NCBI GenBank assembly: GCA_021772915.1
Contig: JAJFLB010000024.1
Span: forward strand, 1-57,575
Length of the DNA stretch: 57,575 nucleotides
DNA from: Gammaproteobacteria bacterium
Lineage (GTDB): Bacteria > Pseudomonadota > Gammaproteobacteria > Xanthomonadales > SZUA-36
Direction: 5' to 3'
Of the stretch, positions 334-57,297 are shown one piece after another. Both the position numbers and the translations under genes were made by a program. The notes beneath the pieces are model-generated. The model was not told the origin of the DNA. It made no database searches and worked only from the letters and a program-made list of their open reading frames with translations. Within the stretch, counting starts at the first letter, position 1, and every line of letters begins with the position of its first letter.

Positions 334-1104
334 CTAATTGCGTGAAATCGCCTCCCAAAGACCACAAAGGTAGTAATAAAGCCGCTTTGTGAGTGCTAAC
401 AATTCCGGGTCCAAACCAGTTTTTCTTACCATTACCGAGTCGTCGACACCCCATTCGATACTCAGCGCGGCATAGTCCAACAGCACAAAACCATGGGCTG
501 CGTACTCCCAATCAATGAGGTACAGGCACTCCGGACAGCCAACAAAATTGGCGACCACCGGATCGTGGTGGCACAGTCCCATTTGTGCACCGCTGTCAAA
601 CAATTCCCCGACCACTGTGTACATAGGTTGGCGTATATCCTCCAGAGCAGGAGTTGACAGCTTTGGCCGCATTTCAATCATTTTCCAATACTGCTCAATG
701 TGAGCGGCATAGTCTATGGGGGGTGCATCCACGTCGAGGCCATGGCAGCGTTCCAGCAAACCGAACGCTTGCTCTAGAACAGACTCCTTCCTCGTGGGCT
801 CGGGGGGCAGGTGATTGTCAATAAAGGCACTGACGAGAAAACTGTTCTGTGAATCAATGTGCAGCAATGGTGGGGCGATGCCATTGTCACTGGCCGCGTG
901 CCAGATTGCAGCTTCCTGGCTACGTTTGGCTTCGGGCAGTAGTGTGTCCCGGCTATTGATGCGTAATACCATTTTTACATCACCGGCAGCCAGCAAAAAA
1001 CTGCGGTTGCTGCGTCCTCCACCCAGTGGCCCGGTGATCACGGGTCTGCAGCGCAGGTCGGCATTCCACTCGCGCCACGTATCGATAGCGGTTTCAGGCT
1101 GCAC
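334..1104 (-). CDS. thiK: Thiamine kinase-like phosphotransferase (APH/choline kinase fold)
   Basis: About 256 residues. It has the aminoglycoside-phosphotransferase/choline-kinase catalytic signature: HHDPVVAN supplies the HxDxxxxN loop and LIDWEYA supplies the metal-binding Asp. Near the N-terminus GPLGGGRSNRSFLL resembles the nucleotide-binding loop. Family members phosphorylate small alcohols. Because it is the last gene of an operon behind a TPP riboswitch, with a TonB receptor and a PnuT-like permease, the likely job is thiamine to thiamine phosphate, trapping imported vitamin in the cytoplasm. The start is GTG at 1104, overlapping the end of the permease gene by 11 bases, which suggests translational coupling. 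The substrate is inferred from context; choline kinase is the alternative. Confidence 0.75.
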   Translation of the reverse strand: MQPETAIDTWREWNADLRCRPVITGPLGGGRSNRSFLLAAGDVKMVLRINSRDTLLPEAKRSQEAAIWHAASDNGIAPPLLHIDSQNSFLVSAFIDNHLPPEPTRKESVLEQAFGLLERCHGLDVDAPPIDYAAHIEQYWKMIEMRPKLSTPALEDIRQPMYTVVGELFDSGAQMGLCHHDPVVANFVGCPECLYLIDWEYAAHGFVLLDYAALSIEWGVDDSVMVRKTGLDPELLALTKRLYYYLCGLWEAISRN

Positions 1105-1738
1105 TGGTTGTCCTGCTTATCCGGTAGTGATTTCGCCAGCTGATGTACCCCAAAACCGCAATGACGATGTAAGCGGCAAACAAAAGGGCCGTCAGACTCA
1201 GGCCGCGCTCGATGTACAGAGGTACCGAAACCGCATCAATAACGATCCAATAGAGCCAGTTCTGCAAGTACTTGCGCGCCACGAGATATGTCGTGAACAC
1301 ACTTGCCCAGGTGGTGAAGGAGTCAACATATGGCCAGGCGGCCTGGCTGTATTCACTAAGCAGATACCCGGAAATCCCGGTGAGTACCACGGTGGCGATG
1401 AGCATCAAGGAATGCTGCTGGTTTGACATGGACCTGATTGCAAGCCCTCCCGGATGCTGACTCTTCCCGTCAATGGCGGTAACGCCTCCCCGGGTCCATT
1501 GGCGCCACCCATAGACTGCCATCGCCATGTAGTAGACATTCAACACGGCGTCCATCAACAGACTGACATCCCAGAACAGGGCCGTGTAAATGGCCGTGCT
1601 GAGAAAAGCAAACAGCCAGCACAGGACATTTTCGCGGACCGCGAGCAACAGGTACGTGATGGCAAACACCACCGCAGTCATTTCCCAGACAGACATGGTG
1701 TGGGCGGTTTGCAATAAGGCTTGCAGCCAGTTGTCCAC
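1094..1738 (-). CDS. pnuT: PnuC-family permease, probable thiamine transporter PnuT
   Basis: A 214-residue, strongly hydrophobic protein with about seven membrane segments and the PnuC-family look: VLNVYYMAMAVYGWRQW and TTWASVFTTYLVARKYLQNWLYW, with a late WIVID segment. PnuC proteins carry nicotinamide riboside by facilitated diffusion. The PnuT subgroup carries thiamine and is typically TPP-riboswitch controlled and linked to a thiamine kinase, exactly the setting here. The chosen start is GTG at 1738, 14 bases after the receptor gene; ATG at 1696 (MSVWEMTAVVF) is an alternative. Transport followed by phosphorylation by the next gene would drive net uptake across the inner membrane. Confidence 0.8.
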   Translation of the reverse strand: MDNWLQALLQTAHTMSVWEMTAVVFAITYLLLAVRENVLCWLFAFLSTAIYTALFWDVSLLMDAVLNVYYMAMAVYGWRQWTRGGVTAIDGKSQHPGGLAIRSMSNQQHSLMLIATVVLTGISGYLLSEYSQAAWPYVDSFTTWASVFTTYLVARKYLQNWLYWIVIDAVSVPLYIERGLSLTALLFAAYIVIAVLGYISWRNHYRISRTTSAA

Positions 1739-1752
1739 TTGAATCAGATGCC

Positions 1753-3888
1753 CTACTGGAATTCGAATTTCACATCAATACCATATACGCGTGGTTCACC
1801 GAACTGACGGTAGACTTCATTGACATAAGCCTTGCGCGGGTCGTTGCCAAAAAACAAACCATGCACGGCGTAGTCCTTGTTAGCCAGGTTGCGCCCCCAG
1901 ATGCGTATCGTCGTGCTCCCCAGTTGGTATCCAAGGCTGGCATTGACCAGCGAATAAGCATCGATTTCCTGGTTGTGGTAATAGCCGTAGAAGCTGTCGC
2001 TACGTCCTTCGACTTCGAGGCGGGCGTAAAGCCGGTTGCCCAGATGGAACTTGCCGCCGATCGAGTATTGCCATTGAGGTGCTTTGGCCTGGTCCCGGTC
2101 CTCGACCACGGTAATGGTTGACAGGCTTGCTTGTCCTGGCTCACCCAGATCAACCACGGTGATCTCACCCACTTTTGAATTGAGCCAGCCGACACTGGCG
2201 AACAGCTTGACGCTCGCTGAGGCCTGGTAGTCCAGTTCCAGCTCCACACCGTAGTTGGTGCCACTGCGCACACTGTCCAGGTATCCCACCCAGAAAAAAT
2301 TCACATCATCCCAAATCCACGCTTCGAGCTGTGCGTTTTTCCTGTCCATATGAAACGCCGCCGCGCGCACAGCCAGCCTGTCGTCGAGGTAGCGACCCTT
2401 GATGCCAATTTCCTTGTTGAGCAGGCTTTCCCTGCCAAACTGTAAGCGGTCTTGCATAAAGGCCTGGAATTTGGGATCCATTAATGCGAAAACCGAGCTG
2501 GCTTCGGTATTAACCCCACCGGGTTTTACGCCACGTGAAATTGTCGTGTAGAGCAGGGTGCCACCATCCAGAACGTGTTGCAGTGTTAGCTCCCCGGTAA
2601 TGTAGTCCTCATCCGTCTTGCTGTTGAGACCATTGGTGTCGCTGTAATCGTCACTGAATTTCTCAAGACGCAAACCGCTGATCAGACGCCAGTTCGATTG
2701 GAAATCATAATCCACTTGACCGTAAATGGCGTAGCGCCGAGTCTCGTAGTCACTGTCAAAGCTGCCATAATACTGGCGATTGAATACCTCACTTCGGGAC
2801 TGGGCATAAATACCCGCCACCCAACTGAGTCGACCGTTATCCACCGACATCAAATGCGCATCCAGACCGAGGTTATCCCGGCTGCGGTCTTGCTCGTCGG
2901 TATTGGCAAACGGAAAACAAGCGGCTATGCCCGTGCAAATATCCGGGTTTGACCAGTCTTCGTCATAGCCAAAGCGGGTATCGACTTCGGACCAGCTGAG
3001 GATCGTTTCAAGTGCCGCGTGTTGGCTAATAGCCCAAAAACTCTTGCCGGCAATTGACAGGGATTGTTGTTGATCCCGCCCCGGTTCGTCCGACAGTGTG
3101 TGGCGGTTGTTGTCCAGTGAAAAGGCGTCATAACCATTGTCGATATCAACCCGTACAACGGTCAAATCGGCGTAACTACCCCCCTTGCCGAGCCAGCGTA
3201 GTTTTCCACGCAGACTGAATTCGTCAAGACCATTGGTATCATCGCGCCCCAGGTAGTCGTTGTGGATAAAACCATCACTCTTGTTTTGGCCTACCGCGAG
3301 CCGGCCCAGCAGATTATCCGCCAACGGCCCGCTGAGTGTGGCTGCGACATTCCAGCTGTTGAATTTACCCAAACCCGCCTGTGCGTCGCTGCTGGGATGC
3401 TCCGTGGGGTCATTGGAGCGAATATTGACCATGCCGGCCAGGGCATTGGTACCAAATCGGGTGCCCTGGGGGCCACGTAAAACTTCAACCTGTTGGATAT
3501 CCAGCATCACGGCGGCCGAGGCAATGCCATTCATATCCACATCATCGATCGTGACACCGACCGAGGGAAAGTACTTGGGGTCGACAAACTGCTCCAGGTC
3601 ACCGACACCCCGAACCTGAATAAAGCGTGCCCTTGATGCGCCCGACGAGAAATTGACATTGGGCAGAATATTGAGTGCATTTTCGAGGTGCCGCGCACCA
3701 CGGTCAAGCAACAACGCCTGTGGGATAACCGAGATGCTACCCGTGGTCTGCAACAACTGGGCATTTCGAAAACGAGCGGTAACGACGACCTCTTCCAACT
3801 CATCCTCGCTTTCGGGCTGTGCGCGCACAGCCGCAGGAACAAGGACCGTTGCCATCAGCAGTAACAAAACAAATATTCTGGTTAGCAT
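1753..3888 (-). CDS. TonB-dependent receptor, probable thiamine uptake
   Basis: A 711-residue outer-membrane receptor. Residues 1-23 form a signal peptide ending in VRAQ. A plug domain follows, with ALNILPNVNFSSGASRARFIQVRGVGD and VEVLRGPQGTRFGTNALAGMVNIRSNDP; the long C-terminal part is beta-barrel and ends in an aromatic residue region (GIDVKFEFQ), as outer-membrane barrels do. Members bring scarce ligands across the outer membrane using TonB energy. The AAGGAGGC-type ribosome site just before the ATG at 3888 is strong. A TPP riboswitch lies in its leader and the next two genes fit thiamine import and phosphorylation, so thiamine or a precursor is the likely ligand. The ligand is inferred; the receptor class is clear. 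Confidence 0.9.
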   Translation of the reverse strand: MLTRIFVLLLLMATVLVPAAVRAQPESEDELEEVVVTARFRNAQLLQTTGSISVIPQALLLDRGARHLENALNILPNVNFSSGASRARFIQVRGVGDLEQFVDPKYFPSVGVTIDDVDMNGIASAAVMLDIQQVEVLRGPQGTRFGTNALAGMVNIRSNDPTEHPSSDAQAGLGKFNSWNVAATLSGPLADNLLGRLAVGQNKSDGFIHNDYLGRDDTNGLDEFSLRGKLRWLGKGGSYADLTVVRVDIDNGYDAFSLDNNRHTLSDEPGRDQQQSLSIAGKSFWAISQHAALETILSWSEVDTRFGYDEDWSNPDICTGIAACFPFANTDEQDRSRDNLGLDAHLMSVDNGRLSWVAGIYAQSRSEVFNRQYYGSFDSDYETRRYAIYGQVDYDFQSNWRLISGLRLEKFSDDYSDTNGLNSKTDEDYITGELTLQHVLDGGTLLYTTISRGVKPGGVNTEASSVFALMDPKFQAFMQDRLQFGRESLLNKEIGIKGRYLDDRLAVRAAAFHMDRKNAQLEAWIWDDVNFFWVGYLDSVRSGTNYGVELELDYQASASVKLFASVGWLNSKVGEITVVDLGEPGQASLSTITVVEDRDQAKAPQWQYSIGGKFHLGNRLYARLEVEGRSDSFYGYYHNQEIDAYSLVNASLGYQLGSTTIRIWGRNLANKDYAVHGLFFGNDPRKAYVNEVYRQFGEPRVYGIDVKFEFQ

Positions 3889-4042: not shown

Positions 4043-4085
4043 CCGTTATTCTAACGCATAGTTCTCATGGGTTACATTCGATTCG

Positions 4086-5720
4086 TCATCTCTGCCCGGG
4101 CATTTTGCAAATTGCCATTGCGGCTTTGCGGGCTGTCAGAATACAACCGCTCAGAAATGTTCCCTCCAGTGACCTCTTCCCCGAAGCGCCGCCTCCGCCG
4201 AAGCCGGTTGCTTCACCTACGGCGTAAAGACCCGGAATGGCTTCGCCTGCCTCCGTCAAAACCCGCCCCTGTAAATCAGTCTGAATACCACCCAGGCTTT
4301 TGCGGCTGATGAAGTGCAGACGTATTGCCATCAGCGGACCATTCCTGCCACTGCCTATGGCCTTCATATTGCTGGTACGAAGCCTGTCGACTCGCCAGCG
4401 GCGAATTTCCTGGATGCGCGATATCTGTGGGTGTTGGTCGTGTAGTGACGGGTCTGCCAGGGCTCGATCATAGTCATCGGCCAGTTTGCACAACTGTTCT
4501 GCACTGATACGATCTTCCTTGCTGAGCTGATTCATTTTTGCGGCCAGTTCATCCCAGTTCTTTGCCCTGATGAAATCAGGGGACTCCGCTAACATCTGCC
4601 TCACCAGGCGTTTGTTACCCAACAGAATCTCTTTCAACACCTGTGTGAATCGTTGACCGAGTATGCCCGGGTTGTGTTGTGAGCCTGAAATGGCCAGCTC
4701 TTTGATGGCAATTTTCCAGTTCAATACCTGCCACGTGTAGGAGTGCCCAGCAACCTGTTCGCACATCTGCCGGGTGTCAAAACCGGTCACCATGGGTGCG
4801 GGTCCCAACTGCCGGCCATCAGGAGACAACCACAGCGATGACTTGCAGGGAATCAGACTCAACCCGTGGCCGTCGAAGTGCGGCTGTGGGTGTGGAATAC
4901 CGGCAGCGTAGTTCCACATGTTGTCCAGATGGGTCAATTGGCCGTCGAGCCTGGCGACTGAGTCGTGAATGACACCATCATTCAGCGGACTGGCGCCATT
5001 CAATATCCTGTGTGGTGGCCCGGCCCAATTTGCGGGCCAGTGTTTGCGTACATTTTCAACTGTACCGTTGATCCCCCCGGTTGCAACGATGGTATTTTCC
5101 GCCTGTACAGAAAATGGCTGCCCACTGGCCTTGTCGATGCCACGGCAGCCGGTTGTTGCACCTTCACGAGAGACGATGTCGCTTGCCTGGTGATCGTGCA
5201 GTACGACCAGGTTGTTGCGCTGTGGGTGCTGGAGCAATCGCGAAATCAGGGTTTCCGTTAACACCCGACCGGTACCCCACAGAATATGATAACGCGCGAC
5301 CGAATTACCCTTGATTAACTCGCCTCGTTCGACAAAATTCACTGCCGCCATGAATTTCAGACCCAGGCTCTTGAGCCATTCGTAAACCAATAAACGCGAT
5401 TCCTTGACGTAACAGTTTGCCCAGGCCAGTGGCCACTTATCATCGACACCGAGTTCACCGAACCGAATCCAGTCCTCCAAAGCCAGCGCTGGTGAGTCCT
5501 TTACCCCCATACGTCGCTGCTCTGGTGTGTCGATCAAGGCCATTCCACCAAAAGCCCACAGCGCAAGACCGCCAAAACGGTCATGGCTGTCAGCATCGAG
5601 CAACATGACCGATTGGCCACCATCCAGCAACTCCAGGGCGGTCACGATGCCTGCAATACCACCACCAATCACAAGATTCTGTGCCTGGTATTCGATTGGT
5701 CCGGACTGTGGGTTTTCCAT
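4086..5720 (-). CDS. FAD-binding dehydrogenase, KstD/fumarate reductase flavoprotein-like
   Basis: About 544 residues from ATG 5720 (an upstream TTG at 5747 is less likely). The N-terminal LVIGGGIAGIVTALELLDGG is a Rossmann dinucleotide-binding fold, followed by LLDADSHDRFGGLALWAFGGM. Near the C-terminus are GLYAVGEATGFGGGGASGKRSLEGTFLSGC and similar segments, typical of the flavoprotein family that contains 3-ketosteroid delta-1-dehydrogenases and soluble fumarate reductases. It should oxidise or reduce a C-C bond of an unknown substrate using FAD. No signal peptide, no heme domain. It is transcribed alone, divergent from the secreted protein at 5920. The substrate cannot be told from the sequence. 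Confidence 0.8.
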   Translation of the reverse strand: MENPQSGPIEYQAQNLVIGGGIAGIVTALELLDGGQSVMLLDADSHDRFGGLALWAFGGMALIDTPEQRRMGVKDSPALALEDWIRFGELGVDDKWPLAWANCYVKESRLLVYEWLKSLGLKFMAAVNFVERGELIKGNSVARYHILWGTGRVLTETLISRLLQHPQRNNLVVLHDHQASDIVSREGATTGCRGIDKASGQPFSVQAENTIVATGGINGTVENVRKHWPANWAGPPHRILNGASPLNDGVIHDSVARLDGQLTHLDNMWNYAAGIPHPQPHFDGHGLSLIPCKSSLWLSPDGRQLGPAPMVTGFDTRQMCEQVAGHSYTWQVLNWKIAIKELAISGSQHNPGILGQRFTQVLKEILLGNKRLVRQMLAESPDFIRAKNWDELAAKMNQLSKEDRISAEQLCKLADDYDRALADPSLHDQHPQISRIQEIRRWRVDRLRTSNMKAIGSGRNGPLMAIRLHFISRKSLGGIQTDLQGRVLTEAGEAIPGLYAVGEATGFGGGGASGKRSLEGTFLSGCILTARKAAMAICKMPGQR

Positions 5721-5919
5721 TGCAGTTATGGCCTGGGTTGAAGGCAAGCCCTTATTGTCCGGAAATTATAAGGCAACAGGCAAGCCCTGGGCTGCATACT
5801 GCACCGGTATCGGGTCAAGGACACGCCGGAAAAGATGGGTTAAACTAGTTCGAACGGGGAGAGGCGGGCGTCTTTCAGCATGCGCATTCAGGTTTTCTGG
5901 CTGCGAAATGGAGGTTGCT

Positions 5920-7188
5920 ATGCGAGTGTATCGTGGTCTCTGCGTTGTTCTCACAGCGGCATTTGTCTTGATCGCTGTCCCTATTTCCCAACCGCTACGG
6001 GCGGGCTCAACGGATTACCTGTGCGGTGACGGGTACTACCACTATTCGTGCAAGAATTACGATGGTTGGAAATGCCAGGATGGCAGGGTGGCGACAAGCC
6101 CGGGCAACTGTGTTGGGCACGGGGGAGTCGTCTCGCGTTTTCGGGCAATTTGCGGTGACGGCATAGGCGATATTGGAGAACAATGCGACCAAGGATCAAA
6201 CAACAGTGATAACAGGGCGAACGCCTGTCGAACCGATTGCCGGTTTGCTTATTGTGGGGATTACGTTAAGGATAATGGAGAACAATGTGACAGCCGTCAC
6301 GGCAACAGCAACAGCCCCAATAACTGTCGCGAGAGTTGCGCACTCCCGGTCTGCGGTGATGGCATCCGTGACGATGGCTCTTACGAGTCTATGGCATTTA
6401 ACGAGGAGTGCGATGATGGCAATGACAATGACCTCGACGGCTGCAAACGGGATTGCACATCCTGTGTGCAGTTGACCGAAAACATCGAGGTAAGCTCCAA
6501 TATCAAGCTTTGCGCCAAGGTGTTCAATGTTGCCGACTACGGCGATGAAGGGGTCATTATTGTCAAACGCCCCGGTGTAATCATTGACTGCGACGGAGCG
6601 ACGCTGATGGGCTCCGGTGTGGGGGCCGGTATCTTTGTGAAGATGAGTAATGACGTGGAGATAAGAAACTGCACGATTTCCGGTTATGCTGCCGGACTCA
6701 AGGCGGTTAACTCTCAAAACGTGTCCGTGCGGTGGGCCAACAATTTTGCCCTAAATACAAAAGCAATCGTGTTGGAGAACTCAAGCAGAAGCGTTACCCT
6801 TCAGAGCGGACAGCAAAACCCCGGCAAGTTGCCATCTACACAGCCTGCAAGACCAACAAACTCCGGTACACCGTCACGTAGCGTACCGCCCACCAGGGTC
6901 AAGACGGCACCCACGGTCAAGTCAGCACCCAGGGTCAAGACGGCTACCGTGGTTAAGATTCAGCCAAGAGGAAGGGTTGTTGTTGAAGGCAAACGGACCT
7001 ACCTGAGTGTGAATGTAGCCATTGCCAGCGCCGATATCTATGCCGGATCCCGGCGTCTCGGCAGATTACCCGGATCAAAGCGTCTCGATATCAGTCGCTA
7101 CGTTCCCAGAGCGGTGAAAGGGGTACTTGTGGTCCATTATTTTGATAGCAAGGGTGTTAAAACCATCCAGAAAATCAAGGTTAAATAG
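5920..7188 (+). CDS. Secreted Cys-rich repeat and beta-helix protein
   Basis: About 422 residues from ATG 5920, which follows GGAGG at good spacing; frames further upstream read through the neighbouring promoter. Residues 1-27 look like a signal peptide (VLIAVPISQPLRAG). Three or four repeats follow, of the type CGDGIRDDG...NEECDDGNDNDLDGCKRDC, matching the myxobacterial-type Cys-rich (DUF4215) repeat with Asp-rich, possibly calcium-binding loops and disulfides. Next comes a short parallel beta-helix/NosD-like stretch (PGVIIDCDGATLMG, VEIRNCTISGY), then a low-complexity TRVKTAPTVKSAPRVKTA linker, then a basic C-terminal domain. Likely exported and extracellular or surface bound. Role unknown. 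Confidence 0.8.
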   Translation: MRVYRGLCVVLTAAFVLIAVPISQPLRAGSTDYLCGDGYYHYSCKNYDGWKCQDGRVATSPGNCVGHGGVVSRFRAICGDGIGDIGEQCDQGSNNSDNRANACRTDCRFAYCGDYVKDNGEQCDSRHGNSNSPNNCRESCALPVCGDGIRDDGSYESMAFNEECDDGNDNDLDGCKRDCTSCVQLTENIEVSSNIKLCAKVFNVADYGDEGVIIVKRPGVIIDCDGATLMGSGVGAGIFVKMSNDVEIRNCTISGYAAGLKAVNSQNVSVRWANNFALNTKAIVLENSSRSVTLQSGQQNPGKLPSTQPARPTNSGTPSRSVPPTRVKTAPTVKSAPRVKTATVVKIQPRGRVVVEGKRTYLSVNVAIASADIYAGSRRLGRLPGSKRLDISRYVPRAVKGVLVVHYFDSKGVKTIQKIKVK

Positions 7189-7494
7189 GTGAGGAATTAA
7201 ATTGGGATTCGCAGCAGAGTAGTCTGGAAGGAGACTCGGCCCCATGAACGATTGAAGGGTTTCACTTCTCAGCAGGACCTATCACTCAAGCCAGCGATAT
7301 ACCGCGTGAGTGTACTTGTAAATCTTGGGCAAAGCTCGGGGTAAGAGCAGCGGTGGTGCACCAACCTGCGTTTTCCGTACGATGGTCTATAATTTCATTA
7401 GACATATATTTGGTAATTCAGCCATCGCTGTGACCGATTCAGCTTGGCGGGCAACTTTACAAAGGGCTTAAGACTAAGAGAGGAGATATTGGCT
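7189..7494. other. Intergenic region, nothing recognisable
   Basis: About 306 bases without a coding frame of convincing quality. I see an AT-rich patch at about 7385-7412 that could hold the promoter of the next gene, including a small inverted pair GTCTA/TAGAC, and the ribosome site AGGAGA just before 7495. No tRNA, terminator with U-run or repeat was found. Confidence 0.4.
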
Positions 7495-8040
7495 ATGAGA
7501 GTGAGCATCGCGAGAAAAACTATTTTGGTGTTGGCGCTACTGGGAGTTGGGATTGGACCCGGCATCGCCGGTGATAATAATGTAAAACTGATCGCCCACG
7601 CGCGGTCTGCGGCGCCCCCTTCCATAGGTGCCAACGCGACCGTGGTGATCAAGGGTGAAGTTGTCGCCAAGGGAAGTAACGGCTGGACCTGCATGCCGGA
7701 AGTGATGGCTGGAGATGGATCCGCTGTTTGTATTGATGCCACGTGGGGAGAAATGATGGCAGCCTTCGGAGCGAAAGCCGTATTCACGCCATCGGGTATT
7801 GGCATTTCATACATGTTGCAGGGTGATGCCGTCGGTGGCGGCGTCAGTAACTCCGACCCTTATCACAAGGATCCAAGGCACGCGGATGATTACACAGAAA
7901 CCGGGCCTCACCTGATGATCATCGCACCTAAAAAAATGCTCAAAGGTATGACCGACGATCCAGCGTCAGGTGGTCCATATGTCATGTGGAAGGACACCGA
8001 CTACGCACATATCATGATACCGGTAGACCGGAGCAAGTAG
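7495..8040 (+). CDS. Small secreted protein of unknown function
   Basis: About 181 residues from ATG 7495, which follows AGGAG at normal spacing; the longer frame from 7444 has no ribosome site. Residues 1-25 (ARKTILVLALLGVGIGPGIAG) are a signal peptide. The mature part has two cysteines (TCMPEV, AVCIDA) that could form a disulfide, and Met/Gly-rich segments such as GPHLMIIAPKKMLKGM and a final HIMIPVD. I do not recognise the family. The composition is that of a soluble periplasmic domain. It lies between the Cys-rich secreted protein and the cysteine synthase fusion, but no shared operon is obvious. Confidence 0.75.
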   Translation: MRVSIARKTILVLALLGVGIGPGIAGDNNVKLIAHARSAAPPSIGANATVVIKGEVVAKGSNGWTCMPEVMAGDGSAVCIDATWGEMMAAFGAKAVFTPSGIGISYMLQGDAVGGGVSNSDPYHKDPRHADDYTETGPHLMIIAPKKMLKGMTDDPASGGPYVMWKDTDYAHIMIPVDRSK

Positions 8041-8127
8041 CAGAGGATTGGTGGAGGTCCTTTACGTCGGCCGCGAGAGCGAGTGACCTAACATGGATAC
8101 TTAATAGGTGGGAGTAATCCAGGGTAT

Positions 8128-9633
8128 ATGACCGGACCATTGAAAAACATTCTCAGCGCAATCGGTGATACACCTGTTTTCAAGATAAGCAAGTTGTCGC
8201 CCCAAGGGGTCAATATCTACGTTAAAGCGGAAGGGTTCAATCCAATGGGCTCGGTCAAGGACCGCATGGCGCTTGCCACGATTGAAGCGGCCGAAGCAAG
8301 CGGAGAGTTAAAGCCCGGGCAAACCGTTATTGAAGCGACCTCTGGCAATACCGGCATTGGCCTGGCCATGGTCTGTGCGGTCAAAGGCTACCCCCTGGTC
8401 GTCACCATGGCCGAAAGTTTCAGTCTTGAACGGCGGAAAATTTTGCGTTTTCTCGGTGCCAAAGTCGTACTTACGCCGGCAGAGTTAAAAGGCACAGGAA
8501 TGCTGGCCAAGGCGGTCGAACTGGTTGCGAAACATGACTGGTTCCTGGTCAGGCAGTTTGAGAATGAAGCCAATGCCGACGCCCATACCCGCACCACCGC
8601 GGAAGAAATTCTGGCCAGCTTTGAGGGCATGCAACTGGATTACTTCGTGACCGGTTTTGGTACCGGGGGCACACTTAAGGGCACTAGCCGGGTGTTGAAA
8701 AAGAGGAGTCCCAACACGAAAGTCATCGTGTGTGAGCCGGATAATACGCAACTACTGGGCAGTGGTATACCGCAAGCCAGGGAGGCTGACGGCAGTCCGT
8801 CTGAAAGCCATCCTCACTTCCGACCACACCTGATACAGGGCTGGTCACCGGATTTCATCCCCAAACTAACCGAAGATGCCATTTCGGCGGGCTTGGTGGA
8901 CCAGGTTGTTCCCGTTGCAGGTGACAAGGCTTTGCGGTTCACCTGTGAACTGGCGCAGAAAGAGGGCATTTTCTGTGGTGTTTCCAGCGGTGCAACGTTT
9001 ACCGCGGCACTGGAAGTAGCAAAAACTGCTCCGGCTGGTAGTAATATTCTGTGTATGTTGCCGGATACCGGTGAGCGCTATCTGTCTACGCCGCTCTTCG
9101 ATGATATTGCGGTTGAGATGTCCGCAGCTGAATGGGAAGTGTCCCGCTCGACACCCAATTATCGTTTCGACGCCGCCACGACCGGCAAATCAGTAGCCGA
9201 GCCAGATAAGGGAGACGAGGCGCCAGTTTCCCTGGATGAGGAAGCACTGGAATTTGTAAATCAGGTCACTTCCAACGCCGAGGAGCCCGTTATCATGTTT
9301 GCTCTGGAATGGTGTGAGTTCTGCTGGTCTGTGCGCAAGTTGTTCGCCAAACTGGAAATACCCTACCAGGCTATCGACCTCGATTCAGTCAAGTACCAGG
9401 AGGGTGACCGTGGCGCCATGATCCGCGCTGTTTTGCTGGACCAGTTGGGTTCACCTACGATCCCGCAAATCTACATCGGCGGCAAGCATATTGGCGGGGC
9501 CACGGATCTTTTCGCGAACTACAATACCGGTGAGTTGGGTGAACGTCTGGCCCGGTACAACATCAGCATGAAGGAAATGCCAGAAGAGTTCGAACCTGCT
9601 TCCTTGCTTCCGGGTTGGTTGCACAAGCGGTAG
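8128..9633 (+). CDS. Cysteine synthase fused to a glutaredoxin
   Basis: A 501-residue two-domain protein. Residues 1 to about 320 are a fold-type II PLP enzyme of the O-acetylserine sulfhydrylase/cystathionine beta-synthase group: GSVKDRM with the PLP lysine K44, TSGNTG at 71-76, the GTGGT phosphate loop and late CGVSSGA. Residues about 370-480 are a glutaredoxin: WCEFCW with C396 and C399, then SPTIPQIYIGG with the cis-proline and a GG glutathione-site pair. The two cysteines are separated by EF rather than the usual PY. A likely task is cysteine or a related beta-substitution product formation coupled to a local redox or glutathione step. The fusion partner order (enzyme then Grx) is clear; the physiological substrate is not. 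Confidence 0.88.
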   Translation: MTGPLKNILSAIGDTPVFKISKLSPQGVNIYVKAEGFNPMGSVKDRMALATIEAAEASGELKPGQTVIEATSGNTGIGLAMVCAVKGYPLVVTMAESFSLERRKILRFLGAKVVLTPAELKGTGMLAKAVELVAKHDWFLVRQFENEANADAHTRTTAEEILASFEGMQLDYFVTGFGTGGTLKGTSRVLKKRSPNTKVIVCEPDNTQLLGSGIPQAREADGSPSESHPHFRPHLIQGWSPDFIPKLTEDAISAGLVDQVVPVAGDKALRFTCELAQKEGIFCGVSSGATFTAALEVAKTAPAGSNILCMLPDTGERYLSTPLFDDIAVEMSAAEWEVSRSTPNYRFDAATTGKSVAEPDKGDEAPVSLDEEALEFVNQVTSNAEEPVIMFALEWCEFCWSVRKLFAKLEIPYQAIDLDSVKYQEGDRGAMIRAVLLDQLGSPTIPQIYIGGKHIGGATDLFANYNTGELGERLARYNISMKEMPEEFEPASLLPGWLHKR

Positions 9634-9652
9634 TAGCTGATGCGGGTAAAAT

Positions 9653-9680
9653 TGGTGGGCCCAGTTGGACTTGGACCTAC
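9653..9680 (-). repeat. Second copy of a tRNA 3' end, att-like site
   Basis: These 28 bases match the 3' end (CCA, acceptor strand and T arm) of the tRNA-Ile gene at 11528-11604 with two mismatches and in the same orientation. Similarity fades after 9680, before the anticodon arm. This is what the distal end of an element integrated at a tRNA 3' end looks like. A decayed second tRNA copy is the alternative. Confidence 0.7.
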
Positions 9681-9748
9681 AACAAGGCCAAGTTTCAAGT
9701 GACTCCTTACCTGCTTGTACGGACTGTCGGGTAAATTGCTTATTTTCT

Positions 9749-9926
9749 ACTAATCCACAGTTTTGTCACTTTTCCTCCTATTTCTACTCTTTTCGTCACA
9801 TACCACTCACTAATCTATTGTTTTTGTCATACATTATTTTTTAATCTACACTTCTTATCGGACATCACTTACTAATCTATAGTGTTTGTCATATACTACT
9901 CACTAATCTACAGTTTTTGTTCATAC
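9749..9926 (+). repeat. Six-unit phased direct-repeat array before the Fic gene
   Basis: Degenerate units beginning at about 9749, 9779, 9809, 9840, 9871 and 9902 follow the pattern ACTAATCTAcaGTTTTTGTCATAC. Steps are 30, 30, 31, 31 and 31 bases, close to three DNA helical turns. Units 1, 3, 5 and 6 are best conserved; 2 and 4 are worn. The array ends 32 bases before the Fic start codon and must overlap its promoter. Helical phasing of identical half-sites suggests cooperative binding of a DNA-binding protein on one face. The Fic protein's own winged-helix-like N-terminus is an obvious candidate. Not a CRISPR: units are contiguous with no unique spacers. Confidence 0.8.
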
Positions 9927-9958
9927 AAGAGACCGCGAATAACACTAAGGAAAGGATC

Positions 9959-11449
9959 ATGGCAGAACTAAAATTTCCTTCGAGCGAGGACGCACAAAAG
10001 GCATCAAGGCTTTTTAGGAAGGGTGAGTGGTTTAGAATTCGCCAAGGAATTTACATCGATACACCCGACCCCGAAGAGATCACTAAAACACTAAATAATA
10101 ATTGGATGGAAGTTGCCTGCAATATTATTAATGGCCCGGTCGCTATAGCCAGGACAGCTGTTGAATTAAGACCAGCAGGGGGGAGACTATATTTTGTATC
10201 GAGTAATTTAAGAGCACATCGTGCAGTCGAAGTGGGACACCTAAAATTTGATATTTGGCCCGGTAACACTGACCTCGGAGTTGAGCAAATCAGCTTGGGA
10301 ATGAAACGAAGTAGCGCAGCTCGATATTGCTTGGAGAATTTGGCTTCGTCCAGAGGAGATGAGAACTCAAGGAAAACACTGGGCAATCAATGGGTGGAAT
10401 CGGAACTCGTGAAAGTCATTCGTCGAAGAGGAGAGGGGGCAATTAACGAATTGAGAGACGAAGCGAGAGGCTTATCAAGTGATTTAGGGCTTGAAAAAGA
10501 ATTTGAAAAGCTGAATGCAATGATCGCATCTCTATTAAGAACACACCCTGCCGAAGGAATATTACAAACACGGTCAGGCATTGCTGAAGCGAAAGGAGAG
10601 CCATTTGATCAGATTCGTTTAGAAAGGTTTAGAGGGCTCGGAGAGTACCTTGAAACAACAGAATTGACGAAAAATGACTACGAATACGACAAGGCAAGTT
10701 GGAGGAACTTAACATTTTTTGAAAGCTATTTCTCAAACTTCATAGAAGGGACGGAATTCACCTTGGAAGAAGCAGAAGAAATCGCTTTTGAAACGAGATT
10801 GATCTATGAAAGGCATCAAGACAGCCATGATATTTTGGCCAATATTGAGATTTCGGGTGATATGTCAGAGATGCATAAGGTCCCAGCCGATACGATTGAA
10901 CTAATTGACATTTTGAAAGTTAGGCATGGGCTTCTATTGGCAGAAAGACCAGACAAGAGACCTGGGGAATTCAAAGAAAAACCTAACAAAGCCGGCGGGA
11001 CGGATTTTGTGTTGCCTGAGCTTTTGGAAGGCACGCTGGTCCAGGGTTTTGACGTTTATCAGTCACTGCCTTTGGGGATGCCGAGAGCCATTTTTATGCA
11101 CTTCATGATTAGCGATATTCATCCATTCGATGATGGGAATGGAAGGTTATCCAGAGTCATGATGAACTCTGAACTAGTTTCAAGGGATCAACACAAGACG
11201 ATTATTCCCATTGTCCATCGAGAAAGCTACTTAAATGGGCTTAGGGCTGCGACGAGACAGGGGCGCTTCAGGACAATGGTAAAAGTTCTTCATCAAATGC
11301 AGTGCTACACGGCCTCTTTAGATTGGGGTGAGTATGGTGAGGTTAAGGCAGTTATCCAAGGGCACGCTGCCGACAAAGAACCTGATGAAGGAATAGCAAT
11401 ATTTAATAAGGTAATTGCAAAGTTAGGTGGTCATTATCCAGCCGGGTAG
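9959..11449 (+). CDS. Fic-family protein with N-terminal AbiEi-like region
   Basis: About 496 residues from ATG 9959, which has AAGGA at good spacing; the frame from 9917 would start inside the repeat array. Residues 1-60 (SRLFRKGEWFRIRQGIYI) resemble the winged-helix start of AbiEi-type antitoxins, with a further alpha/beta segment to about 130. The Fic domain has SNFIEG at 259-264, fitting the SxxxEG inhibitory helix of class II Fic proteins, and the complete active site HPFDDGNGRLSR at 388-399. Fic enzymes usually transfer AMP to a hydroxyl on a target protein. All catalytic residues are present, so an active but self-restrained enzyme is expected. It sits alone in a tRNA-bounded AT-rich islet behind a phased repeat array, suggesting autoregulation. 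Target unknown. Confidence 0.88.
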   Translation: MAELKFPSSEDAQKASRLFRKGEWFRIRQGIYIDTPDPEEITKTLNNNWMEVACNIINGPVAIARTAVELRPAGGRLYFVSSNLRAHRAVEVGHLKFDIWPGNTDLGVEQISLGMKRSSAARYCLENLASSRGDENSRKTLGNQWVESELVKVIRRRGEGAINELRDEARGLSSDLGLEKEFEKLNAMIASLLRTHPAEGILQTRSGIAEAKGEPFDQIRLERFRGLGEYLETTELTKNDYEYDKASWRNLTFFESYFSNFIEGTEFTLEEAEEIAFETRLIYERHQDSHDILANIEISGDMSEMHKVPADTIELIDILKVRHGLLLAERPDKRPGEFKEKPNKAGGTDFVLPELLEGTLVQGFDVYQSLPLGMPRAIFMHFMISDIHPFDDGNGRLSRVMMNSELVSRDQHKTIIPIVHRESYLNGLRAATRQGRFRTMVKVLHQMQCYTASLDWGEYGEVKAVIQGHAADKEPDEGIAIFNKVIAKLGGHYPAG

Positions 11450-11527
11450 TTGTGACCACTCTCCTCCCGAGGACTAAAGCGAAGGCTTACGCATCTGCAA
11501 AAAACGAATAAAATCAGTGTGAAAAAA

Positions 11528-11604
11528 TGGTGGGCCCAGTAGGACTTGAACCTACGACCAATCGATTATGAGTCGAGTGCTCTAACCAGCTGAGCTATGG
11601 GCCC
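11528..11604 (-). tRNA. tRNA-Ile2 (anticodon CAT, lysidine type)
   Basis: A full cloverleaf of 77 bases including the encoded CCA. The acceptor is GGGCCCA/TGGGCCC, the D arm GCTC...GAGC, the anticodon loop CTCATAA (anticodon at 11568-11570) and the T arm GTAGG TTCAAGT CCTAC. The TCATAATCGATTGGTC stretch and C4-G69/C5-G68 pairs fit the minor isoleucine tRNA whose CAU is modified to lysidine-AU by TilS, rather than elongator methionine tRNA. One anticodon-stem end pair is a C-T mismatch. Its 3' end serves as the apparent integration site of the Fic islet. Confidence 0.9.
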
Positions 11605-11669
11605 ATTGTGGAGCGGGATCTAGTGTACCTGTGACCGGTGAATTGGCAAAGCCATTAGCTTGTAGATAA

Positions 11670-11960
11670 TTACGAATTGTCGGTAGTTTCACTGTCTTCT
11701 GTTGTTACCTTTGCCGCACTTTCCGCTTTTTTGTAGCTTTGTATATGCTCCAGTGTTCCCCGGTATGCCGCCACGACCTTGTCAACACCTGTTGGCTCGA
11801 GCCCCCCTTCATTGCCTGCTGCTACAAAGGTTGCGTAAACGCCGGATGCTGCCATCAACGCAGCGGATATCACCGGCTCCTCAAAACTCTCTTGTTGCAG
11901 TTTGTTGGCCAGTTCCACAAACTGGGTTACGCAATGTTGGTGTTTCTCTGCGGCATCCAT
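11670..11960 (-). CDS. Small conserved protein, DUF3144-like
   Basis: A 96-residue soluble, mostly helical acidic protein: HQHCVTQFVELANKLQQE, then VISAALMAASGVYATFVAAG, then GVDKVVAAYRGTLEHIQSYKKAE and a charged, disordered C-terminus. The pattern resembles the DUF3144 family of small proteobacterial proteins, which is itself uncharacterised. No signal peptide or membrane segment. Single gene between the tRNA and the carboxypeptidase, with its own start ATG at 11960. Assignment is by general pattern and should be taken as tentative. Confidence 0.65.
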   Translation of the reverse strand: MDAAEKHQHCVTQFVELANKLQQESFEEPVISAALMAASGVYATFVAAGNEGGLEPTGVDKVVAAYRGTLEHIQSYKKAESAAKVTTEDSETTDNS

Positions 11961-12047
11961 TGGCTTAATCCTTCTGATTCAAATGATGCTGGGGATTATA
12001 GAGGTTTTGGGGATGTTTTGGGGTTCCCTCTGACCCAACCGGCAATC

Positions 12048-14645
12048 CTACGGACAGCTCAATCCGACGATGTTGGTCAGCCGGATGAGAGTTAAAACAC
12101 CAGACCCAAAACCCGGTTCAGTGCTGGTATAGGTGGCTGTGCCACCAAAACAGTCAAGCTCCAGCACCAACGTTCCCCAGGCGGGGAAGGTGACCAGGTC
12201 AGAATTGAAATCAGGTCCGAATACGCCACCTTTGGATGTCTGTATGTTGTCAAAGACGAGTTTGCCGTCAACTAGCTCGCCCACACCGAAAAACCACCGC
12301 CGGTTCCCGGCGGGATCGAAGCTGAACCAGTACACGACGATCCGTCCGTCCGCAAGAACTTCCACGTTAAAACCTTCACCGCTGTGGCTGAGGTCAAACC
12401 AGGAGCCACTCAGCAAGGCCAGCTCGCTTAGGGGTAAAAGCCTCGGGATTCCACAATCCAGACCCATCAGGGTGGTAATCCTGGCCAATTGCATGCGACC
12501 GTGACGGGTTCCAATGTGGTAACTCATACTGCCTTCGTCACAGCCTGACCAGATAAAACTGGCGGAACCAACCACTTCCCGTTTTACTTTTGAAGGATCG
12601 AAACCCGGACCGAATTCACCCCCCGATACACGGTAGAGTTCAGCGAACTCAACACGATTTCCGCGGATCTCTCCCAGGGCGACATACCAATCCTGGTTGC
12701 CTTCATCATCGTAGGTAAACCAGTACAGCACGACCCTACCATCGGCGAGCACTTCGAGCAGGAAACCCTCGCCGCTGCGTGAAAGATCGAACCAGGATGA
12801 CGTAATGCCAGCTTCCAGTAAAAACAGAGGTGGTACCACCTGGTCTGTTACCCGAAAAGAGATCGTTGAATCCTGGCCACCAACATCTGATTCAGCACCG
12901 TTGGAGTTTTCATAACGTGTCCACGACCCGTTCTGCCACCCAACTACGGTGCCGGGGTTGGTATCAGTAAACATACCCGTCATGTCAGATGCCATTAGCC
13001 TGAATGTAGCATCCGTGCCACCAGCGACCAGACTGCTGTTTAGTATGTCATCTGGCAAGTTAAAGGTAAGGTTTAATGAATCATCCTGGTAATACCTGTA
13101 CCCGTCAGGGGCGCCACCGGACTGATTAAGCCAGTCTGCACTTTCAAGGTTAGCGGTCAATTCCGTATTGTTGACAATGATGCCAGCATTGACGTCCAAA
13201 CCGCTGTCGGGTTGCCCGGGGAAGGCAACGACTTCACCGGCTTCACGCCAACGCATGGGTTTGTTAAAGGCCAACCAGAGACTATAACTGCGGTTGAGTT
13301 CCAGCGACTGGAGTTGATTGGTGTACAAAGAGCGGGTTTGACTATCGACGACATCCCATGCCGTTTCAAAAACGACGGCACCGGTGGTCGGGTCCACTAT
13401 GCGTAGCTCCTGGATACTCGGCGGCCCCGCCTGGCGGTAGTACGCCGCAGCAAACGACTGGGCCAGTTCTTCCCTTACTCTGCGGATTTCGGATTCGGGC
13501 AGAATAAACCCGTCATGGCCATTTTCGCGCAGACCGCCATAATCCGCACCACTGCCCGGCAACGGTGCATGAAAACTTTGTCCACCACTGGGCTCGACCT
13601 CCAGTGTCCAGGACGGTACCTGATAGGTATGGGTGAAGTATTCGTCGGTAGTACCAATGCCCTGATTAGCTGGTGTGTTAATAGCCGTGGTAAAGGCGTA
13701 CCACTTGCCGGCTGGGAATGCCCTGTGGTGGTTTGTAAAAGTGTTAAGCACCTGTTGCGTCTGGCGGCTTAGACGACTGTTGTTAGTACGTACCCAGAAA
13801 TTCACCAAGGAGAATGAATGTACATCGGTGTAGATTCGCAACTGGTCGATCGGGCCCAATTCCGCGGCCGTATCCAGGGCTTGTGTCTCACCCTCGGATT
13901 GCGGGGCGGTGCCGTGATGGACGATTGAGCTTACCAATCCTGAAGACCGACCTGGGTTGGTGGCCCAAAACGGTGCGTTGTTGCGGTTCAGGTCAATTCC
14001 ATTGAGATGATCCCCGATGGTGAAAAGGTCCTCATCCACATTGCGCATATTTTTGCGTCGCATTCGGCCGTCACGTGGTGAACCAAACGGATCATTGGGA
14101 TCAGTTTGTAAATAGTTAAGTGCGGGGGTGCGCTGCGTTTGCATAAACCCGTCGATGTTTAACGATGGGATTACAATCATGTTTACATTATCCCGCAGGT
14201 AATCGTAAAAATGATGATCGTTTTCGTGTAAGGCCAGTAACTCCAGAACACCGGTTACGACTTCGGGTGTCTGCCATTCGCGGGCGTGGATACCACCGTT
14301 GGTTAACATGGCTGGTTCCGGCAGACCGTCGATAGTCAGTTTGTCGTTATCACCCAGTCGATAGGCCCAGATGGTGCGTCCTGCAGAAGTCCTGCCAATG
14401 TCTTCAGCATGTACATAATCTGTCGTTGCAACCAAATCCTGGTGCCGTGTATGCAAACCCGCATAGGTTCGAAAACCGTCAAAGGGTAACGGGGTGTTTA
14501 CGGGTATGGGAACCGGGTAACCCAGCGCTATTTTGTTGGTTTCCGACGGTGCTCTGGTATTCACCCACTCGGTCAAAACCTGTGCGCCGGCGGGTCCGAT
14601 GGCAGACAGAACAAGTACCAAATAGCAAAGTAGTCTAATTTTCAA
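12048..14645 (-). CDS. Secreted M14 zinc carboxypeptidase with two C-terminal repeats
   Basis: 865 residues starting with TTG at 14645, preceded by GAGGTG at good spacing. Residues 1-21 are a signal peptide. The M14 metallocarboxypeptidase domain has HAREWQTPE (zinc ligands H120 and E123), LNRN at 219-222, YTDVHS (zinc ligand H276) and WTLEVE, with E349 as the probable catalytic glutamate, so the enzyme looks intact. It trims C-terminal residues of peptides outside the cytoplasm. After a linker domain, two copies of a roughly 105-residue repeat (SWFDLSRSGEGFLLEVLADG and SWFDLSHSGEGFNVEVLADG) end the protein, probably for binding or secretion. The start overlaps the stop of 14642-15697 in a TTGA, so both are translationally coupled. 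Confidence 0.9.
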   Translation of the reverse strand: MKIRLLCYLVLVLSAIGPAGAQVLTEWVNTRAPSETNKIALGYPVPIPVNTPLPFDGFRTYAGLHTRHQDLVATTDYVHAEDIGRTSAGRTIWAYRLGDNDKLTIDGLPEPAMLTNGGIHAREWQTPEVVTGVLELLALHENDHHFYDYLRDNVNMIVIPSLNIDGFMQTQRTPALNYLQTDPNDPFGSPRDGRMRRKNMRNVDEDLFTIGDHLNGIDLNRNNAPFWATNPGRSSGLVSSIVHHGTAPQSEGETQALDTAAELGPIDQLRIYTDVHSFSLVNFWVRTNNSRLSRQTQQVLNTFTNHHRAFPAGKWYAFTTAINTPANQGIGTTDEYFTHTYQVPSWTLEVEPSGGQSFHAPLPGSGADYGGLRENGHDGFILPESEIRRVREELAQSFAAAYYRQAGPPSIQELRIVDPTTGAVVFETAWDVVDSQTRSLYTNQLQSLELNRSYSLWLAFNKPMRWREAGEVVAFPGQPDSGLDVNAGIIVNNTELTANLESADWLNQSGGAPDGYRYYQDDSLNLTFNLPDDILNSSLVAGGTDATFRLMASDMTGMFTDTNPGTVVGWQNGSWTRYENSNGAESDVGGQDSTISFRVTDQVVPPLFLLEAGITSSWFDLSRSGEGFLLEVLADGRVVLYWFTYDDEGNQDWYVALGEIRGNRVEFAELYRVSGGEFGPGFDPSKVKREVVGSASFIWSGCDEGSMSYHIGTRHGRMQLARITTLMGLDCGIPRLLPLSELALLSGSWFDLSHSGEGFNVEVLADGRIVVYWFSFDPAGNRRWFFGVGELVDGKLVFDNIQTSKGGVFGPDFNSDLVTFPAWGTLVLELDCFGGTATYTSTEPGFGSGVLTLIRLTNIVGLSCP

Positions 14646-55723: not shown

Positions 55724-55740
55724 GAAAGAGAGTGACCAGA

Positions 55741-57297
55741 ATGGCAACACCTTCAGAAAAACTGGTTGAATCCCTTCAGACTTTAAGAGAGCTGCAAGAG
55801 CGCGGGGTTGTGGCGATAAAATCTCGTGACTTGAGCCGGACCCACCGGGAGCGCCTGATCAAAAACGGGTTTTTGAAGGAAGTCATGAAGGGTTGGTATA
55901 TCCCTTCACGCCCGGATGAGGCTTACGGAGACAGCACCGCATGGTATGCCACATTCTGGGATTTTTGCGAAGCCTATTTGAGTGAGCGATTTGATAATAA
56001 TTGGTGCTTATCTCCGGAACAGTCTATATCCCTTCATACCGGCAATCGAACGGTACCAAACCAACTGCTCGTACGAACTCCGAAAGGGGGCAATAAACCA
56101 ACAACACTACCGCATGGGACGTCCATTTTTGACGTTCGTTACACAATGCCAAGGGAAGATGAAATCGTTACCAAAGACGGTTTACGTCTTTATTCGGTGC
56201 CTGCTGCTCTTGTGGCCTGTCCAGAACATTTATTCCGGCAGGCATCTACGGACATACGCGCTGCCGTGGCAACGGTAAAGGACGCCTCGGATGTACTGGC
56301 AATTCTGCTTGAAGGCGGACACAGCACGATTGCCGGGCGATTAGCTGGTGCCTTCCGGAATGCTGGACGTGACCGGATTGCAGATCAAATCGTAAGAACA
56401 ATGAAAAGTGCCGGATACGCGGTGTGGGAATCCGACCCGTTTGAAAACAGACCACCGATCATACTGGATACGCGGGAAGCTTCTCCGTATGTCAACCGCA
56501 TCCGCCTGATGTGGGCAGAAATGCGAGGGCCAATAATTGAATGCTTTCCGTCAGCTCCCGGCCTGCCTGAGAATATCAATGCGTACCTCAAGCATGTTGA
56601 GGATATTTACGTCACCGATGCCTATCATTCACTGTCGATCGAAGGCTATCGCGTGAGTGCAGAGTTAATTGAACGAGTGCAAAGCGGCAATTGGAATCCG
56701 GATGATGATGAGAATGACCGGGAGCACCGCAATGCCCTGGCTGCACGTGGTTACTGGCAGGCTTACCAGGTCATGCAGGAAAGTCTTGGAAAGATTCTGC
56801 GTGGCAGCAATCCGGGAACTGTCGTAGATGTTGACCACAGCATATGGTACGGGGAACTATTTGGGCCAGGCGTGACAGCGGGCATTATTAGTGCCGTCGA
56901 TCTTGCAGGCTACAGAACCGGCCCGGTTTATATACGCCGTTCTATGCATGTGCCTCCGCCAAGGGAAGCGGTCCGTGATTGCATGCCAGCGTTATTTGAG
57001 CTTTTGAAAAATGAGCCCGAACCGTCGGTTCGCGTTGTCCTCGGACATTTTATATTTGTCTACATTCATCCTTATGTAGATGGCAACGGGCGCATGGGAC
57101 GCTTTTTAATGAACACGATGTTAGCAAACGGCGGCTATCCGTGGACTGTTATTCCAGTTGATGAACGAAATGCTTATATGGCTGCATTGGAAGTCGCCAG
57201 CGTGGGTCAAAACATAATCCCGTTTGCTGAATTTCTATCAAGATTGGTAGATGATGGTCTGAAAGGGAGGTCAATTCTCGAAATTCCGTCTGCATAA
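55741..57297 (+). CDS. Fic-family protein with AbiEi-like N-terminus
   Basis: About 518 residues from ATG 55741 (GTG 55732 is also possible). Residues 5-60 (ELQERGVVAIKSRDLSRTHRERLIKNGFLKEVMKGWYIPS) match the winged-helix opening of AbiEi-type antitoxins, with an alpha/beta region to about 230. The Fic domain has SLSIEG at 297-302 (SxxxEG, class II inhibitory helix) and HPYVDGNGRMGR at 443-454 with Y in place of F, all catalytic residues present. It would AMPylate an unknown target. Lower GC than the genes to the left; the next gene starts 23 bases after its stop. Confidence 0.88.
   Translation: MATPSEKLVESLQTLRELQERGVVAIKSRDLSRTHRERLIKNGFLKEVMKGWYIPSRPDEAYGDSTAWYATFWDFCEAYLSERFDNNWCLSPEQSISLHTGNRTVPNQLLVRTPKGGNKPTTLPHGTSIFDVRYTMPREDEIVTKDGLRLYSVPAALVACPEHLFRQASTDIRAAVATVKDASDVLAILLEGGHSTIAGRLAGAFRNAGRDRIADQIVRTMKSAGYAVWESDPFENRPPIILDTREASPYVNRIRLMWAEMRGPIIECFPSAPGLPENINAYLKHVEDIYVTDAYHSLSIEGYRVSAELIERVQSGNWNPDDDENDREHRNALAARGYWQAYQVMQESLGKILRGSNPGTVVDVDHSIWYGELFGPGVTAGIISAVDLAGYRTGPVYIRRSMHVPPPREAVRDCMPALFELLKNEPEPSVRVVLGHFIFVYIHPYVDGNGRMGRFLMNTMLANGGYPWTVIPVDERNAYMAALEVASVGQNIIPFAEFLSRLVDDGLKGRSILEIPSA

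What the first reader, a model, noticed from the sequence alone, without database searches (positions are those of the whole stretch)
9653..11604. tRNA-flanked islet carrying only a Fic gene and a repeat array
The tRNA-Ile 3' end is duplicated at 9653-9680 in the same orientation (26 of 28 bases), and the AT-rich segment between holds only the array and one Fic gene with no integrase. Such minimal islands imply mobilisation in trans or loss of the mobility gene.
Basis: partly seen in the sequence, partly recalled or inferred. Interest (0 to 1): 0.75.

Follow-up and report, generated by a model that had tools for sequence, protein, structure and literature searches.

The report
tRNA-flanked Fic gene with 31-bp operator array
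A small, probably inserted DNA segment beside a transfer-RNA gene carries one probable self-regulating Fic enzyme gene, and the row of repeats in front of it is probably the enzyme's own binding site, since many distant relatives keep such repeats at the same 31-base spacing.

Summary
Observation confirmed. The 3' 31 nt of tRNA-Ile(CAU) (11528-11604, -) recur in direct orientation at 9653-9683 (28/31). Between them lie an intact 496-aa Fic gene and a repeat array, 43% G+C against 53% outside, with no integrase match.

The islet reading is partly supported. No ortholog was found in nine congeners. Similar tRNA-Ile 3' copies occur in 6 of 36 other genomes, one with a single-gene islet. No relative gives a clean empty site, and no integrase could be assigned.

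The array is probably not a mobility part. Two orthologs (72-73%) share only array plus gene (1.69 kb), on contigs without a tRNA. Diverged homologs in Pseudomonadota and Bacteroidota have upstream direct repeats of different sequence but 31-bp spacing: 16 of 23 protein clusters pass the strict score, against 1 of 54 control Fic genes.

Best explanation: a class II (self-inhibited) Fic enzyme with an AbiEi-like N-terminal region that represses itself by binding sites three helical turns apart. Binding, repression and target are inferred. Autorepressing Fic proteins are known; I saw no report of this arrangement, in listings and passages only.

The parts
11528..11604 (-). tRNA-Ile(CAU) gene; its 3' end is the tRNA-side repeat
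   Evidence: ARAGORN (labelled Met); three best E. coli matches annotated tRNA-Ile
9653..9683 (-). direct copy of the tRNA 3' 31 nt (28/31), the far-side repeat, att-like
9750..9933 (+). array of six degenerate repeats, 30-31 bp apart, unit roughly CTAATCTACAGTTTTTGTCATA; proposed operator of the fic gene
   Evidence: the same period stands upstream of the orthologs and of most homologs
9947..9955 (+). purine-rich, ribosome-binding-site-like stretch before the fic ATG
   Evidence: read by eye from the sequence
9959..11449 (+). fic: 496-aa protein; AbiEi-like N-terminal region (about 1-186) and class II Fic domain with S259xxxE263G264 and HPFDDGNGRxxR (388-399)
8128..9633 (+). flank: cysteine synthase-glutaredoxin fusion; ends 19 nt before the far-side repeat; elsewhere in the relatives read
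11670..14645 (-). flank: DUF3144 gene and M14 peptidase; next to this tRNA in the seven congeners with a full-length copy

Best explanation
(1) A DNA segment of about 1.9 kb was inserted at the 3' end of tRNA-Ile(CAU), probably by a tyrosine recombinase, leaving the tRNA whole and a now diverged 31-nt copy of its 3' end at the far side (inferred from anatomy and from similar duplications in other genomes). (2) Its cargo is a self-contained unit: a repeat array plus one gene. The gene encodes a class II Fic enzyme (inhibitory motif within the same chain; shown by sequence) with an N-terminal AbiEi-like region, presumably DNA-binding (weak profile matches). (3) The protein binds the repeats, which stand on one face of the DNA about three helical turns apart before its gene, and so represses its own gene (inferred from conserved position and spacing with changing sequence, from rarity of the pattern at Fic genes without this N-terminal region, and from autorepression by CccR and AbiEi). 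When repression or self-inhibition is lifted, the Fic domain would AMPylate a cellular target and arrest growth, as a stress- or phage-responsive toxin (inferred; target unknown).
For: Insertion: 28/31 repeat; lower G+C; no ortholog in 9 congeners; eight 3'-end copies of 39-51 nt and about 90% identity or more in 6 of 36 other genomes, one forming a single-gene islet in G020; an integrase-like ORF about 60 nt downstream of this tRNA in G040 ('integrase' rests on similarity to an ORF named by eye and weakly matching a profile-supported one). Unit: L107 and L108 share only 1.69 kb (array, gene and 5 nt; 86.6%), and no tRNA is found there. Operator: best spacing is exactly 31 in 15 of 23 clusters; the score at 30-32 is 10 or more in 16 of 23 and 8 or more in 20 of 23, against 1 and 6 of 54 control Fic genes and, at spacing 31, 2 and 2 of 107 upstream regions of other ORFs. 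Mean score is 13.4 at 31 and 4.1 at other spacings. Position: strict scores in 1 of 21 regions further upstream, 0 of 23 inside the gene, 2 of 23 downstream. Domains: S259, E263, G264 and the HPFxDGNGRxxR residues invariant in 12 of 12; AF2 model pLDDT 77.6 matching FICD and Fic structures; single AbiEi models match up to 6 of 17 N-terminal regions.
Against: No empty site found. The far-side repeat is shorter and more diverged than the copies in other genomes, so it could be an older scar. No integrase is assigned. Three of 23 clusters fall below score 8 (L158 7, L248 6, L162 4), and four more score only 8-9, which 5 of 54 controls also do. Of six clusters found only after the pattern was seen, three are clear (L164, L165, L166), two borderline (L171 p 0.033, L163 p 0.066) and one negative (L248). 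The window's own AbiEi match is weak (E 0.014, 15.9 bits against a cut-off of 25). The N-terminal region brought no relevant solved-structure match by profile, and a model of it alone was unusable (pLDDT 42). The promoter scan finds 5 sites in the islet region against 3.3 in shuffles. A second promoter-independent regulon test found no other motif copies, and the pattern used recovers only 2 of the 6 array copies. Nothing shows binding, repression, AMPylation or toxicity.
Confidence: 0.6

Rival explanations
1. The 9653 copy is an older scar (a decayed tRNA duplicate or the end of a lost island), and fic with its array reached this spot by another route; the two repeats do not bound one inserted element. 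(This concerns part 1 only and does not exclude the operator.)
For: The copy is 31 nt at 90%, while the copies counted in other genomes are 39-51 nt. The tRNA-distal flank is rearranged against relatives. The two orthologs lie on contigs without a tRNA.
Against: The copy lies in the orientation and position expected of a far att site, the lower-G+C segment fills the space between the repeats, and other genomes show the same kind of duplication.
Confidence: 0.27
2. The array is part of the islet's mobility: arm-type integrase sites or a transfer origin used in trans.
For: It lies close to the far-side repeat, and no integrase match lies on this contig.
Against: It accompanies the gene in orthologs on contigs without a tRNA and, at the same spacing, in distant homologs on plasmids and in genomes. 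It is rare at control Fic genes.
Confidence: 0.04
3. The array binds another host factor (a silencer or a separate regulator), not the Fic protein itself.
For: A+T-rich DNA attracts silencers (recalled); autobinding is not shown.
Against: Repeat sequence differs between clusters while spacing stays near 31, across two phyla, which fits a self-encoded binder better; the signal is rare where the match does not reach the N-terminal region.
Confidence: 0.12

Closest known systems
CccR of Yersinia pseudotuberculosis (PMC9755527, passages read)
   Same: Class II Fic with inhibitory S/TxxxEG motif and a DNA-binding domain; represses its own gene by binding its promoter; toxic by AMPylation
   Different: HTH is C-terminal (residues 276-380); its operator is one inverted repeat with a 26-bp gap, not an array of direct repeats at 31 bp; it is a secreted effector. 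Its sequence was not asked for or compared here
CbFic2 of Coxiella burnetii and SoFic (PMC10628234, passages read)
   Same: Class II Fic with an HTH; in CbFic2, DNA binding is proposed to promote dimers and deAMPylation; PADLOC's SoFic model matches the Fic part
   Different: HTH C-terminal with N-terminal DUF4172; no specific operator known for CbFic2; the window protein scores 20 bits against the SoFic equivalog cut-off of 550
AbiEi antitoxins of AbiE type IV systems (PMC3985639 passages; PMC7319586 abstract)
   Same: N-terminal DNA-binding domain followed by a second domain; autorepress at repeats in their own promoter; AbiEi models match this N-terminal region weakly
   Different: Separate antitoxins paired with a nucleotidyltransferase toxin; operators are inverted repeats; here the region is fused to Fic and the repeats are direct
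tRNA-targeted genomic islets (general knowledge)
   Same: Insertion at a tRNA 3' end with a direct copy at the far side
   Different: One long gene, no integrase, no proven mobility

Membership tests
tRNA-associated genomic islet | Direct repeat of the tRNA 3' end at the far side, same orientation | tested here: met
   28/31, unique in the window
tRNA-associated genomic islet | Cargo absent from close relatives at this site | tested here: met
   No ortholog in 9 congeners of 77-98% completeness; five of seven sites read have other genes after the tRNA, two end within 252 nt
tRNA-associated genomic islet | Empty site with both flanks joined in a relative | tested here: inconclusive
   tRNA-distal flank not syntenic in any relative read
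tRNA-associated genomic islet | Own integrase | tested here: not met
   No phage-integrase profile match on this contig; minimal islets may lack it
Class II Fic enzyme | Fic motif HxFx(D/E)GNGRxxR and S/TxxxE(G/N) N-terminal to it | tested here: met
   Invariant in 12 of 12; Pfam Fic
Class II Fic enzyme | AMP transfer to a protein | not testable with these tools
   needs an assay
SoFic equivalog | Score over the curated cut-off | tested here: not met
   20.4 bits against 550
SoFic/CccR-type Fic | HTH domain C-terminal to the Fic motif | tested here: inconclusive
   About 97 residues follow the motif, without a Pfam match; no structural test of that part was made
AbiEi family | AbiEi profile match over the curated cut-off | tested here: not met
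   Window: Pfam AbiEi_4 15.9 bits against 25; homologs better, best E 4.6e-7 with PADLOC models
AbiEi family | Binds repeats in its own promoter | not testable with these tools
   repeats present; binding not assayed
Toxin-antitoxin pair | Separate cognate antitoxin gene beside the toxin | tested here: inconclusive
   No second long ORF between the repeats, but short ORFs up to 111 aa were not scanned

The most novel reading that the evidence does not exclude
The array is a DNA antidote as well as an operator: by holding several Fic molecules side by side in register it keeps them in the self-inhibited or deAMPylating state, and loss or dilution of the array (for example when phage enzymes attack DNA, or when a mobile copy is lost) frees active Fic. 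A one-gene toxin would then have a row of DNA sites as its antitoxin, maintained across two phyla by a fixed 31-bp spacing.
Probability: 0.1. Interest if true: 0.85.

Novelty: new variant of a known kind. Interest (0 to 1): 0.5.

Why it matters
The islet alone is ordinary. What is useful is that the unexplained array becomes a testable rule: many Fic enzymes with an N-terminal AbiEi-like region carry phased direct repeats, 31 bp apart, directly upstream, in two phyla. This predicts how these enzymes may control themselves without a partner antitoxin; the CccR authors write that nearly nothing is known about functions and activity modulation of class II Fic proteins (PMC9755527, passage). It gives ready substrates for binding and activity tests, and shows how to tell gene-owned repeats from mobility repeats in small islands.

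Tried and rejected
Array as att arms or transfer origin: rejected, because it stays with the gene on contigs without a tRNA. CRISPR-like array: not pursued; the copies are degenerate, without constant repeat and unique spacer. A second tRNA copy further left marking a larger island: none. A clean empty site through cysK and two neighbouring genes in relatives: none found beside the tRNA. Other genes under the same motif: one 3-mismatch match elsewhere, as many as the control gives; the pattern recovers 2 of 6 array copies. Phage records: 1 weak partial match among 50,697. Viral contigs: none with the three-sequence alignment or with one Phocaeicola protein; with the wider alignment 80 of 170 relatives kept, from a capped scan, nine of them long matches. 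N-terminal part modelled alone: unusable; both jobs were then used. Papers: searches; I read passages of three papers and one abstract; the rest are search listings, not opened. For direct repeats with Fic or AbiEi, one search found no paper, searches listed 5 and 12 by co-occurring words, none opened except the CccR passages, so absence from print is not established.

Limits of the repeat statistics. Start codons were chosen by nearness to the aligned start and some may be internal. The first 23 loci include those in which the pattern was first seen by eye: 17 score 8 or more and 14 score 10 or more at spacing 31. Of the 14 loci taken later one was too short; shuffle p is at most 0.033 in 10 of 13, but several are near-copies of each other or of the first set. 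For one search, 9 of 37 loci were dropped (8 near-copies or partial, 1 too short), leaving 28, of which 25 and 20 pass the two cut-offs; for, 2 of 25 clusters were unusable. Controls are 54 of 71 viral-contig loci whose match did not reach the N-terminal region; 17 fell out for no motif-bearing ORF, too little upstream DNA or duplication; they come from one collection and were not checked for a diverged N-terminal region. In one search, 2 of 107 upstream regions of other ORFs scored 10 or more and I did not trace which. The cut-offs 8 and 10 were chosen after seeing the first set.

Full report
Observation. The window holds one tRNA, 11528-11604 (-), anticodon CAU; the three best E. coli matches are annotated tRNA-Ile. 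Its 3' 31 nt recur at 9653-9683 in the same orientation with 3 mismatches, and no shuffle gave such a second match. No further copy lies in the window. Between the repeats are a degenerate array of period 31 and one long ORF, a 496-aa Fic gene. G+C is 42.5% inside and 52.5% outside. No phage-integrase profile match lies on this contig.

Site in relatives. The order M14 peptidase, DUF3144, tRNA is kept in the seven congeners with a full-length tRNA-Ile(CAU) of at least 88% identity. What follows the tRNA differs: in two the contig ends 149 and 252 nt on, in five other genes follow, and the fic ortholog is absent. Across all nine congeners, 77-98% complete, no match reaches E 1e-50; weaker Fic-domain matches occur in four, the best at 29% identity in G006. 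G002 and G009 have, some kb downstream of the tRNA, relatives of the window's genes at 334-3888, TonB-receptor- and PnuC-like by eye, so the window's stretch from 3.9 to 11.5 kb differs from these relatives. Cysteine synthase-glutaredoxin lies elsewhere in the six relatives read, and its 3' flank there shows no tRNA fragment (one flank only 132 nt long). So no clean empty site is at hand. Copies of the tRNA 3' end of 39-51 nt, about 90% identical or more, occur eight times in 6 of 36 other genomes. In G020 the copy lies 1.3 kb downstream of the tRNA, with one ORF of 340 aa between, rhodanese-like by eye. In G040 an integrase-like ORF lies about 60 nt downstream of the tRNA. The window's genome has seven integrase-profile matches, one below the cut-off; no tRNA was found in the loci fetched around them.

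The array belongs to the gene. Two orthologs, 73% and 72% identical, lie in another genus of the family; the genome-collection scan returned two loci with the same identities and contig lengths. By blastn they share 1.69 kb, the array and gene plus 5 nt, at 86.6%, and nothing else but a repeat match inside the array. No tRNA is found on those contigs of 12.8 and 9.2 kb. Each has a repeat array of about the same period directly upstream.

A family rule. Full-length homologs at about 30-45% identity were taken from plasmids, whole genomes and viral contigs. They are rare: besides the window, 3 of 397 genomes sampled in the order, 4 of 397 in the phylum sample and 7 of 368 in the class sample at the strict cut-offs used. 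Most have direct repeats directly before the gene. The repeat sequence differs from group to group but often begins TTAA and carries GTC, GAC or TCGC about ten bases on (by eye). In 23 clusters at 60% identity the best spacing is exactly 31 in 15 and 30-32 in 17; 16 score 10 or more and 20 score 8 or more. Among 54 control Fic genes 1 and 6 do. Of the other spacings only 41, one helical turn more, rises above background (6.7 against 4.1). Regions further upstream, inside the gene and downstream show little: 1 of 21, 0 of 23 and 2 of 23 at the strict cut-off. Without the window's cluster, 15 and 19 of 22 remain. Against the rule: L158, L248 and L162 score 7, 6 and 4; L135, L138, L161 and L163 only 8-9; and of six clusters found after the pattern was seen, three are clear, two borderline and one negative.

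The protein. The Fic motif HPFDDGNGRxxR and the inhibitory motif SxxxEG N-terminal to it are kept in 12 of 12 homologs, D391 apart; this is class II as defined in PMC9755527 (passage). The model (8 sequences, pLDDT 77.6) matches FICD and Fic structures. Single AbiEi models match up to 6 of 17 N-terminal regions (best E of any 4.6e-7) and Pfam AbiEi_4 matches 4 of 17 (best E 9.5e-5); the window's own match is weak. PADLOC places the Fic core nearest to the candidate defence family PDC-S04, a name and not a tested function. Annotated neighbours of plasmid homologs include HipA, VapC, RhuM and ParA.

Mechanism. [quoted passage not shown] By analogy, the N-terminal region here should bind the direct repeats and repress fic. 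Thirty-one base pairs are about three turns, so copies face the same side. That the protein binds, represses, AMPylates or poisons is inferred.

Verdict. Observation confirmed; the islet is likely but unproven; the array is most probably the gene's operator, a new variant of a known kind.

Noticed in passing
window 55732-57297: A second Fic-like ORF (521 aa) at the right end of the window matches the Fic core weakly (35%, E 2.6e-8).
   Followed up: no
L106 (G000:C35), 6919-11783: A tRNA-Lys gene in the same genome has a 47-nt, 83% match to the tRNA-Ile 3' end about 4.8 kb downstream, with no integrase-like ORF found between; in G004 a tRNA-Lys beside the same genes by eye has an integrase-like ORF next to it and a copy 4.4 kb away.
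   Followed up: partly
L081, L083, L084, L101, L104, L117, just after the tRNA 3' end or its copy: Sequences with ACATAGGTAACAC-like motifs follow the tRNA end in several genomes; they look like an insertion-sequence end, by eye.
   Followed up: no
L091 (G020:C182), 5073-6503: A sister islet at tRNA-Ile(CAU): 51-nt copy at 94%, one rhodanese-like ORF, no integrase-like ORF found.
   Followed up: partly
L139, L155, L156, L161, L164: A second repeat spacing of 41 bp, one helical turn more than 31, occurs in several homologs.
   Followed up: partly
L161, 1053-1129: Of 25 homolog loci scanned one has a tRNA: tRNA-Phe near the fic 3' end, but with the gene on the tRNA's 5' side, so not an islet arrangement like the window's.
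   Followed up: partly
L155, L162: Two homologs hold an internal stop codon, so the gene may be decaying there.
   Followed up: no
L108, about 4077-4319: Near-identical repeats of about 42 bp, about three copies by eye, directly downstream of the ortholog's stop.
   Followed up: no
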